Origin: an uncultured Bacteroidota bacterium
Lineage (GTDB): Bacteria; Bacteroidota; Bacteroidia; JABEUT01
Length of the DNA: 64,000 nucleotides
Assembly (NCBI GenBank): GCA_903863935.1
Contig: CAIPDV010000080.1
Coordinates: 1 to 64,000, forward strand
Reading direction: 5' to 3'
Both the position numbers and the translations under genes were made by a program. Below the pieces are notes generated by a model. The model searched no databases. It worked only from the letters and a program-made list of their open reading frames with translations, and was not told the DNA's origin. The stretch's first letter is position 1. Every line of letters starts with the position of its first letter. Positions 58,267 to 61,170 of this stretch are shown here, one piece after another.

Positions 58267-59067
58267 ATGGCTGAAGAAGAAAAAATAGTTGTGCAGACAA
58301 TGGCCGAAATGACCGCCAAAGGAGAAATTCCGGAAGTGTTGTTTTGGGTGGGTTGCTCGGGAAGTTTTGATGACAGAGCAAAAAAAATTACTACTTCCAT
58401 AGTGCGTATTTTGCACAAAGCAGGAATAAAATTTGCAGTGCTTGGCACCGAAGAAAGTTGTACGGGTGATCCTGCCAAGAGAGCCGGAAACGAATTCCTC
58501 TTTCAGATGCAGGCAATAAATAATATTACTATTCTGAATGGTTACAACGTGAAAAAAATTGTGACCGGATGCCCTCACTGTTTCAATACTATTAAGAACG
58601 AATACCCATCTCTTGGCGGCACATACGAGGTAATGCATCACACCGAGTTTATTAAAAACTTGCTTGATTCAGGCAGAATAAAAATTGAAGGCGGTTCCTT
58701 TAAAGGCAAAAAAATTGTTTTCCATGACCCTTGTTATTTAGGCCGTGGCAATGATATATACGAAGCCCCACGCGAAGTGATATTGAAATTAGACACTATG
58801 CTTGCCGAAATGAAACGCAGCAAAGAAAAAAGTTTTTGTTGCGGCGCAGGTGGAGCGCAAATGTTTAAAGAAGCTGAAAAAGGAAACAAAGAAGTAAATA
58901 TAGAACGCACCGAAGAAGCCCTCACTACCTCTCCAGAGGTAATAGCAACAGCCTGCCCTTTTTGCATGACCATGATGACCGACGGCATAAAACATTTTAA
59001 CAAAGAACAAGAGGTTAAGGTGTTGGATGTGGCGGAATTGGTTGCTGAGGGGATTGGGAAGAGTTAA
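58267..59067 (+). CDS. CCG-domain (heterodisulfide reductase-related) iron-sulfur protein
   Basis: A 266-residue protein with two cysteine-rich CCG domains. First: GCSGSFDDR, EESCTGDPAKR, TGCPHCFNT. Second: HDPCYLGRGN, FCCGAGGAQMF, TACPFCMTM. Such domains bind a noncubane [4Fe-4S] cluster and occur in HdrB, glycolate oxidase GlcF and LutA/LldE-type subunits. In many Bacteroidetes it stands beside a second ferredoxin-like subunit; none is here. Redox partner unknown. Its stop lies one base from the stop of the convergent gene. Confidence 0.88.
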   Translation: MAEEEKIVVQTMAEMTAKGEIPEVLFWVGCSGSFDDRAKKITTSIVRILHKAGIKFAVLGTEESCTGDPAKRAGNEFLFQMQAINNITILNGYNVKKIVTGCPHCFNTIKNEYPSLGGTYEVMHHTEFIKNLLDSGRIKIEGGSFKGKKIVFHDPCYLGRGNDIYEAPREVILKLDTMLAEMKRSKEKSFCCGAGGAQMFKEAEKGNKEVNIERTEEALTTSPEVIATACPFCMTMMTDGIKHFNKEQEVKVLDVAELVAEGIGKS

Positions 59068-59068
59068 G

Positions 59069-60562
59069 TTATACTGAGATTGGCCCAACAATATCAATAA
59101 AATCATACTTAAGTTCATCTGCTGACAAGTTTTTTATTTTGATGTCCCTGGCTGTTTTTAGTATTGTATTTTCTAACATCTCAGTATAAAATCTTGAGAT
59201 TCCAAGAACATGGATAATTTGTATATCTCGTTCAAATTTTGGGATTGAATTAATAAAATATGGAGCTTGATTAATAATATCTGGATCGATATTTAATGCA
59301 ATTAGCTTTTCTATAATTTTCACTTTTATTTTTTCAAGTAAGTCAAGATTAATTGTAAGATACCATTGCTCCAAGGAAAGTATTTCAATATAGTGCTGTT
59401 TTTTCTCTCGATATTGAAAATCCAGATATTTCCCTGATTTATAATCAATGAATGTTTTGTATATTTTGACTATATAATCGGAAATAGTTTTAATGTCATC
59501 TTTAATCCCATCCTCAAAATTAAGTTCTATTTTAGATTTTAACTGCATTCTCTTTGCCTTACATTCATAAAAAACCACAGCATTTTCATCCTCGATTATC
59601 CAATCTGAAGATTTATTCATTCCATTATTATAAACGAATTCAGGATAGACTTTGAATTTTTCAGGGATATTAGCTTTTTTTATTATATACCCAGTGTATT
59701 CCTCAAATGAATGCCCTATTGCATTGGAATAACTACTTTCATTTGTAGCAATTAAATGATAGAAGACACCATTAGTAACTTGTTCATAGAAAAGCGTTGT
59801 AAAAGGGCAATAAATCTGATCGCCATCTTTTACTAACGGAGTTTTTTTTAATGGATTATAGCAATAAAATATTCTCTCATCGTACTTTTTGTTTTTTTTT
59901 ATTTCTTCTTTTAACTTATGGAATTCTACTGAATATAAGTATATAAATTTTTGGAGATTTTCATCAGATACTGTTTGGATATAAGATACAAAAGGTCCGT
60001 TCCAAATAATATTATTCATAAAAAACCCAATCAATGTATATGAAATCTTATAAAATTCAATTGGCTCCATTCCAAAATATTCGACAAAAATTGGTTTGAC
60101 TTCAGGGTGATTATGCACCCTAAAATATCTATATATAGAAAACATATCCATATCTTGTTGCCATGGAAATTGACGATGCTCCAGTCGAAATAGTTCTTGG
60201 AAGAAATTTTCTCGGCTCGTAAGAATGAGTTTATCAATTCCATCGTTTAAATCCCTAAGTGAATTAATTAATAATGTAAGTTGGTCGGGGTTCAGTACTG
60301 TTTGGGTTCCTTTATTATCTGAATATAAAATTGCTTCGGTAAGGATAAATTCAAGCTCCCATTCGGTGACTCCATATATCCGCCTAATATTTCTGTCTGT
60401 TGTTTCCTGAAAGGCTTTTGTTCGTGGTATGCTAGGAGGTAATTCTTTGTCATATTGAAGATTATTTACCATTGCCCAAGCATAAAAAAACGTGTCCAGT
60501 AGATAATAGTTTTTTATTAACTCTTGAAATGGAAAATATAAAGCGTATATTTTATCTTTCAT
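59069..60562 (-). CDS. Orphan protein with PD-(D/E)XK nuclease-like motif
   Basis: About 497 residues, not recognised as a named family. The N-terminal 240 residues are mostly helical and aromatic-rich. In the second half (numbering from a GTG three codons upstream of the ATG), HSFEEYTGYII (Glu290/291), KSSDWIIEDENAVVFYECKAKRM (Asp323, then Glu336-x-Lys338) has the spacing of the PD-(D/E)XK core seen in restriction-type nucleases. Nuclease activity is inferred from this motif alone. Two 60-base lines counted by hand had about 22 and 25 percent G+C, against 50 percent in the gene next door, which suggests recent transfer. It stands alone, without a methylase or helicase neighbour; a solitary defence or housekeeping nuclease is possible. 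Confidence 0.65.
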   Translation of the reverse strand: MKDKIYALYFPFQELIKNYYLLDTFFYAWAMVNNLQYDKELPPSIPRTKAFQETTDRNIRRIYGVTEWELEFILTEAILYSDNKGTQTVLNPDQLTLLINSLRDLNDGIDKLILTSRENFFQELFRLEHRQFPWQQDMDMFSIYRYFRVHNHPEVKPIFVEYFGMEPIEFYKISYTLIGFFMNNIIWNGPFVSYIQTVSDENLQKFIYLYSVEFHKLKEEIKKNKKYDERIFYCYNPLKKTPLVKDGDQIYCPFTTLFYEQVTNGVFYHLIATNESSYSNAIGHSFEEYTGYIIKKANIPEKFKVYPEFVYNNGMNKSSDWIIEDENAVVFYECKAKRMQLKSKIELNFEDGIKDDIKTISDYIVKIYKTFIDYKSGKYLDFQYREKKQHYIEILSLEQWYLTINLDLLEKIKVKIIEKLIALNIDPDIINQAPYFINSIPKFERDIQIIHVLGISRFYTEMLENTILKTARDIKIKNLSADELKYDFIDIVGPISV

Positions 60563-60621
60563 ATCATTCACGACTCTAATATAACTCTTAATTTTGTCTT
60601 TTATTTAAATATATTAAAGAC

Positions 60622-61170
60622 ATGCCCTTACCCACCCTCTCCGTCCGCGAAATAGAAAAGTCTGATATTGAATTACTGGTCAAGTATTGGCTGGAATCGG
60701 ATGAGGCGCATCATGCGGGCATGGGTGTTGACCCAACCAAAATCCCGGATGAAAAAGCATGGCGGTTGATGTTATCGAAACAATTAAATCAGCCTTATAA
60801 AGAAAAATTATCGTATTGTATAATTTGGGAAGTAGATGGAAAAGCTATGGGCCATTGCAATATCAATCCGGTTGTTTTTGGAGAAGAAGCATTCATCCAT
60901 TTGCATCTTTGGCATCTAAATTCCCGGCAGAAAGGAATAGGTTCAGAATTAGTAAAAATGACGCTACCTTACTTCTTCAATAATATGCAATTGAAGAAAA
61001 TTTATTGCGAGCCTTATGCCCTGAATCCTGCACCAAACAAGACTCTACCGAAACTGGGTTTTGAGTTTGTAAAAGAATATACCACTATTCCCGGCTCATT
61101 GAATTTTGAACAACCGGTGCGGAGATGGGAACTGAGCCTGGAAAAATTCAATAAAATGAATCTGGCATGA
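60622..61170 (+). CDS. GNAT family N-acetyltransferase
   Basis: A 182-residue acetyltransferase-fold protein. LSVREIEKSDIELLVKYW opens the fold, IWEVDGKAMGHCNINPV gives strands 2-4, and HLWHLNSRQKGIGSELVKMTLPYFFNN holds the acetyl-CoA loop (RQKGIGSE). LGFEFVKEYTTIP completes the fold. Substrate unknown. It overlaps the next gene by four bases (ATGA), which indicates translational coupling. Confidence 0.88.
   Translation: MPLPTLSVREIEKSDIELLVKYWLESDEAHHAGMGVDPTKIPDEKAWRLMLSKQLNQPYKEKLSYCIIWEVDGKAMGHCNINPVVFGEEAFIHLHLWHLNSRQKGIGSELVKMTLPYFFNNMQLKKIYCEPYALNPAPNKTLPKLGFEFVKEYTTIPGSLNFEQPVRRWELSLEKFNKMNLA

What the first reader, a model, noticed from the sequence alone, without database searches (positions are those of the whole stretch)
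59069..60562. AT-rich orphan with PD-(D/E)XK core
The protein has a large helical N-terminal half of no known family and a restriction-nuclease-like motif (Glu290/291, Asp323, Glu336-x-Lys338). The base composition of sampled lines is far below its neighbours, and it sits between ordinary genes with no methylase, so it could be a newly acquired single-gene defence nuclease or an anti-plasmid factor.
Basis: partly seen in the sequence, partly recalled or inferred. Interest (0 to 1): 0.6.

Follow-up and report, generated by a model that had tools for sequence, protein, structure and literature searches.

The report
GapS1-like single-gene antiphage nuclease
The AT-rich gene encodes a nuclease that is a distant cousin of GapS1, a one-protein bacterial defence against viruses, and it sits at a chromosome spot where related bacteria carry other swapped-in genes, so it is most likely a recently acquired immune gene.

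Summary
In detail: an intact 497-aa ORF at 59069-60562 (-), the most AT-rich 1.5 kb of the window (29% GC against 39.6±2.0%). D320, E333 and K335 are invariant in 24 relatives, and the predicted structure shows the PD-(D/E)XK order of elements. "No known family" is wrong. The only significant library match is NCBIfam antiphage_GapS1 (E 7.7e-28), and both halves are homologous to GapS1 separately. The protein stays far below the family's curated cut-off (97.5 against 320 bits), and a tree puts it in an unannotated sister clade found on plasmids, in a prophage and in genomes of Pseudomonadota and Patescibacteria. Several relatives sit beside restriction-modification genes or, on Sinorhizobium pSymA, beside a type III retron and IetAS. 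In congeneric genomes the same spot carries a GxxExxY-type nuclease gene or a DUF4238 gene, both about 31% GC. Best reading: a stand-alone, horizontally acquired antiphage nuclease with the helical N-terminal half as sensor. Defence activity, trigger and substrate are inferred, not tested. Side finding: two candidate-phyla relatives are divergent from LexA repressors fused to non-homologous DNA methylases.

The parts
59069..60562 (-). GapS1-like nuclease gene, 497 aa, ATG 60562, stop 59069-59071
59858..60562 (-). N-terminal helical half (residues 1-235), proposed sensor/regulatory part; conserved W68, E76, R126, Q131-F-P-W-Q135, R145
   Evidence: N-half alone matches the N-half of GapS1, hhalign P-value 1.3e-15; N-half against C-half and column-shuffled controls 0.14-0.54; conserved columns; helices
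59369..59740 (-). PD-(D/E)XK catalytic core (about residues 275-398): helix with E287, D320, E333-C-K335
   Evidence: D320, E333, K335 invariant in 24 relatives; secondary structure H275-297, E304-307, E321-324, E328-335, H349-375, E389-396; Foldseek matches to PD-(D/E)XK enzymes
59061..60621 (.). exchanged segment: homology with the closest congeneric genome (G005) breaks at both of its ends; G005 carries a 0.5 kb GxxExxY-type unit here
   Evidence: blastn breakpoints at window 59060 and 60622
58267..59067 (+). left neighbour: (Fe-S)-binding heterodisulfide-reductase-like protein, conserved in the genus
   Evidence: found in 8 of 10 congeneric genomes searched, one of these only as a distant paralogue; function read by eye
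60622..61170 (+). right neighbour: GNAT-type acetyltransferase
   Evidence: conserved and syntenic in G005; function read by eye

Best explanation
The gene encodes a stand-alone, infection-triggered antiphage nuclease of a sister clade of GapS1, recently acquired as a single-gene cassette. Shown here: an intact single gene; a PD-(D/E)XK core with the catalytic residues conserved; full-length homology to GapS1 in both halves; patchy distribution over distant phyla and on mobile elements; gene exchange at this spot within the genus; several relatives next to known defence genes. Inferred: the helical N-terminal half senses a phage product (for GapS1 a capsid protein has been reported; from memory, not read here) and releases the C-terminal nuclease, which cleaves nucleic acid and stops the phage or the infected cell. 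The trigger and the substrate of this clade are unknown.
For: NCBIfam antiphage_GapS1 E 7.7e-28 over residues 67-450, the only significant library match. Profile against a GapS1 set: P 1.3e-28 over 445 columns; N-half alone 1.3e-15, C-half alone 1.4e-16, controls 0.14-0.54. Two members of that GapS1 set exceed the family cut-off. Catalytic D320, E333, K335 invariant in 24 relatives. Model pLDDT 87, pTM 0.86; Foldseek top hits Upx (9wuf, E 7e-5) and N.BspD6I nickase, with FokI, R2 endonuclease, Cap4 and HamA as weak hits. Relatives on conjugative plasmids and in a prophage. Defence neighbours: retron III-A plus IetAS, type IIG or MmeI-like enzymes and methylases beside four of the nearest relatives. 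PADLOC at E 1e-10: 193 families among 123 genes within 3.5 kb, 41 among 96 distal genes of the same loci. Lowest GC of the window, absent from 10 congeneric genomes, replaced by other low-GC genes at the same spot.
Against: The score is far below the GapS1 family cut-off (97.5 against 320 bits), and plain BLAST against a GapS1 member over the cut-off is marginal (E 5e-4). No experiment on any member of this clade was found. No other known defence gene was seen beside it in this genome. The neighbour comparison counts families, not genes, so methylases inflate it; the distal set also contains some PADLOC hits. The primary GapS1 paper was not available here, so the sensing mechanism rests on memory.
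Confidence: 0.68

Rival explanations
1. A solitary restriction endonuclease: a sequence-specific DNA cutter whose cognate methylase is elsewhere, lost or unneeded.
For: PD-(D/E)XK core; Foldseek matches to the nickase N.BspD6I and FokI; nearest relatives L039, L040, L045 and L065 have methylase or restriction-modification neighbours, and the GapS1 homologue in L004 directly follows a methylase-like gene.
Against: Most relatives and the window itself have no adjacent methylase. Two relatives that are 88% identical sit beside methylases that are not homologous (D12 class against NPPW type), which a cognate restriction enzyme could hardly tolerate.
Confidence: 0.13
2. A selfish or homing-type nuclease that occupies an insertion spot and has no benefit for the host.
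For: The same spot holds a GxxExxY-type nuclease unit with terminal inverted repeats in a congeneric genome, and low-GC single genes turn over there.
Against: No terminal repeats stand out at this cassette; relatives lie in unrelated contexts including defence neighbourhoods; full-length homology to an antiphage family.
Confidence: 0.09
3. A DNA repair or plasmid-control nuclease without a role against phages.
For: PD-(D/E)XK folds are common in repair enzymes; HSDR_N and DUF234 gave one weak Pfam hit each among relatives; a LexA-methylase fusion gene lies divergent to two relatives.
Against: Patchy, rare and mobile: one same-clade match, the window's own, in 395 genomes of the phylum, plus three weaker matches of which at least one is a canonical GapS1. 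Many relatives are on plasmids.
Confidence: 0.06
4. A decaying passenger without activity.
For: The C-terminal 30 residues are poorly modelled and shorter than in several relatives.
Against: Full-length open frame with the catalytic residues and conserved N-terminal motifs kept.
Confidence: 0.04

Closest known systems
GapS1 (GAPS1; NCBIfam NF047931, antiphage_GapS1)
   Same: Single protein of about 460-500 aa, helical N-half and PD-(D/E)XK C-half, both halves homologous by profile; mobile and patchy.
   Different: 97.5 bits against a cut-off of 320; separate clade in the tree (SH-aLRT 95-100 on the branches between, long branches warned of). No gamma-mobile-trio island was looked for here; the gene is a lone chromosomal cassette.
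Upx (PDB 9wuf; a defence system according to recall)
   Same: Best fold match, E 7e-5, probability 1.00, over 549 alignment columns.
   Different: 1212 residues, TM-score only 0.30, 10% identity; no PADLOC or PDB sequence-level match. Shared nuclease core at most.
BspD6I/FokI-type PD-(D/E)XK endonucleases
   Same: Nuclease core.
   Different: No sequence family match, no methylase beside the window gene, different N-terminal half.
GxxExxY-type protein / PDDEXK_3 (PF13366), which occupies the same spot in G005
   Same: PD-(D/E)XK superfamily, low GC, single gene at the same locus.
   Different: 157 aa, carried in a unit with terminal inverted repeats; another Pfam family.

Membership tests
GapS1 (NF047931) | Score over the curated cut-off of 320 bits | tested here: not met
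   97.5 bits
GapS1 (NF047931) | Homology over the full length including the N-terminal half | tested here: met
   hhalign P 1.3e-28; N-half 1.3e-15, C-half 1.4e-16, shuffled and cross controls 0.14-0.54
GapS1 (NF047931) | Falls inside the clade of members over the cut-off | tested here: not met
   Sister clade with 36 rows, SH-aLRT 95-100, long-branch caution
GapS1 (NF047931) | Antiphage activity as a single gene | not testable with these tools
   needs a phage challenge
PD-(D/E)XK nuclease superfamily | Helix-strand-strand-strand-helix-strand core with E, D, E-x-K in place | tested here: met
   Foldseek hits to PD-(D/E)XK enzymes
PD-(D/E)XK nuclease superfamily | Metal-dependent nucleic acid cleavage | not testable with these tools
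   needs an enzyme assay
Type II restriction-modification | Cognate methyltransferase beside the nuclease | tested here: not met
   none in the translated ORFs around the gene, read by eye

The most novel reading that the evidence does not exclude
The sister clade (window gene plus about 35 relatives in Pseudomonadota, Patescibacteria and Bacteroidota) is an unrecognised single-gene immune family with a trigger different from GapS1. In candidate-phyla bacteria it is placed under an SOS-type repressor that is itself fused to an interchangeable DNA methylase, so that DNA damage or loss of methylation would license the nuclease.
Probability: 0.2. Interest if true: 0.62.

Novelty: new variant of a known kind. 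Interest (0 to 1): 0.42.

Why it matters
It extends the GapS1-type immune nucleases to an additional clade that PADLOC, Pfam and PHROGs do not recognise and NCBIfam matches only below its cut-off, and it shows a chromosomal spot where single low-GC genes are exchanged between close relatives. The conserved N-terminal motif (R126....Q131-F-P-W-Q135 ... R145) and catalytic residues give direct targets for testing how such one-protein systems sense infection.

Tried and rejected
Pfam, PADLOC, PHROGs and PDB sequence searches of the single protein gave nothing significant; the Pfam pNTSase1 hit (18 bits, cut-off 25) and the PDB kinase hits were rejected as chance. The first structure prediction, on 7 distant GapS1 homologues, was poor (pLDDT 57) and was replaced by one on 24 same-clade relatives. 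No phage record matched and one viral contig did. Terminal or direct repeats around the cassette: none stood out, only short low-complexity matches of AT-rich DNA. Promoter and terminator matches were near the shuffled expectation. A partner gene conserved across relatives was sought: only methylase/restriction-modification neighbours recur in four of the nearest relatives; other repeats are between near-duplicate loci or ordinary genes. The cognate restriction enzyme idea was weakened by methylase swapping beside 88%-identical relatives. The primary GapS1 paper is not held.

Full report
Observation. The ORF at 59069-60562 (-) is real and intact: 497 aa from the ATG at 60562, single copy in the genome. 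Its GC content is 29.4%; windows of the same length that do not overlap it have 39.6% (sd 2.0%, minimum 34.7%), and its GC3 is the lowest of 40 long ORFs (profile).

Identity. Pfam, PADLOC, PHROGs and PDB sequence searches found nothing significant, but NCBIfam gave antiphage_GapS1 (NF047931) at E 7.7e-28 over residues 67-450, with 97.5 bits against a curated cut-off of 320. Homologues in the same class and phylum, two of them over the cut-off, were used as a GapS1 reference set. A profile of the query clade against that set aligns over 445 columns with P 1.3e-28. The N-terminal halves alone give 1.3e-15 and the C-terminal halves alone 1.4e-16, while crossed halves and column-shuffled controls give 0.14-0.54. 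So the 'helical half of no known family' is the GapS1 N-terminal half.

Relatives and tree. tblastn found full-length relatives on plasmids of Pseudomonas, Sphingobium, Caballeronia and Cupriavidus. A scan of genome contigs found 28 loci, the nearest (about 32% identity, E 5e-68) in Kuenenbacteria and Parcubacteria, with others in Doudnabacteria, Andersenbacteria, Hyphomicrobium and many Pseudomonadota. In 24 relatives Q131, R145, P242, D320, E333, K335 and W400 are invariant. A tree of 42 proteins puts the window protein in a clade of 36 apart from four GapS1 homologues (support 95-100, with a long-branch warning). The seven plasmid relatives tested score 32-79 bits against NF047931, also below the cut-off. 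It is therefore a GapS1-like sister clade, not a member of NF047931 as curated.

Structure. With 24 clade members as alignment the model has pLDDT 87 and pTM 0.86. The order of elements H275-297, E304-307, E321-324, E328-335, H349-375, E389-396 is that of a PD-(D/E)XK core with the conserved residues in the expected elements. Foldseek matches are Upx (9wuf, E 7e-5) and N.BspD6I; FokI, R2 endonuclease, Bax1, Cap4 and HamA follow as weak hits with E above 0.05. The viral library gave no hit below 0.001.

Locus. The 10 congeneric genomes searched lack the gene; several are incomplete. In the closest, G005, whose left-neighbour protein is 97% identical, homology runs to window 59060 and resumes at 60622. 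Between these points lies a 0.5 kb unit with a GxxExxY-type gene (PDDEXK_3, 32% GC), bounded by inverted repeats readable in the sequence (TCTTACCACGGAGGCACGGAGA). In G007 the same side of the left neighbour carries a DUF4238 gene (31% GC). This is a spot where single low-GC genes are exchanged. The window's own cassette shows no convincing terminal repeats.

Context of relatives. One lies on Sinorhizobium pSymA next to a type III-A retron (PRTase and RT) and IetA/IetS. One follows an S24 repressor gene in a Mu-like prophage region of a Thioclava plasmid. One lies near a tyrosine recombinase on a conjugative Pseudomonas plasmid. One is in an operon-like run after a type IIG enzyme (L045), and one is near an MmeI-like enzyme (L065). 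PADLOC families at E 1e-10: 193 among 123 genes within 3.5 kb, against 41 among 96 distal genes of the same loci. This counts families rather than genes and is only a rough control.

A side finding on regulation. In two candidate-phyla genomes, relatives that are 88% identical are transcribed divergently from a LexA repressor fused to a DNA methylase. The LexA parts are 62% identical, but the methylase parts are not homologous: D12 class in L039, an NPPW-type enzyme in L040. A cognate restriction enzyme would not be expected to keep its sequence while its methylase is exchanged, so this weakens the restriction reading and suggests regulation by a repressor. The window gene has no such neighbour.

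Mechanism and verdict. Most likely this is a stand-alone antiphage nuclease, with the N-terminal half as sensor and the C-terminal half as effector. Sensing, substrate and outcome (abortive or curative) are inferred. That GAPS1 defends against phages is stated in a meeting report (PMC12908700) and a GAPS1-like prophage protein is reported in PMC12774648; the capsid trigger of GapS1 is from memory, because the primary paper (doi 10.1038/s41564-024-01840-5) is not held.

Noticed in passing
L039:1-1344(-) and L040:7414-9903(-), each divergent from a GapS1-like gene: LexA repressor (HTH and S24 domains) fused to a DNA methylase; the methylase halves of the two fusions are not homologous although the neighbouring GapS1-like proteins are 88% identical.
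   Followed up: partly
L069:7372-7842(-) and flanks (G005), equivalent to window 59061-60621: A GxxExxY-type (PDDEXK_3) gene in a 0.5 kb low-GC unit with inverted repeats TCTTACCACGGAGGCACGGAGA at both ends occupies the spot of the window gene.
   Followed up: partly
L068:7118-8143(-) (G007): A DUF4238 gene at 31% GC directly behind the same conserved Fe-S gene; its function is unknown and it may be another exchanged defence-type gene.
   Followed up: no
L034:9798-16095 (Sinorhizobium meliloti pSymA): GapS1-like gene followed by a type III-A retron pair and IetA/IetS: a compact defence island.
   Followed up: partly
L023:331-2280: A TIR-domain-like protein (read by eye) directly upstream of a very distant GapS1-like protein.
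   Followed up: no
L060-L064: A subgroup of closely related proteins spread over Sphingobium, Stakelama, Phyllobacterium and Plastoroseomonas, suggesting recent transfer between families.
   Followed up: no
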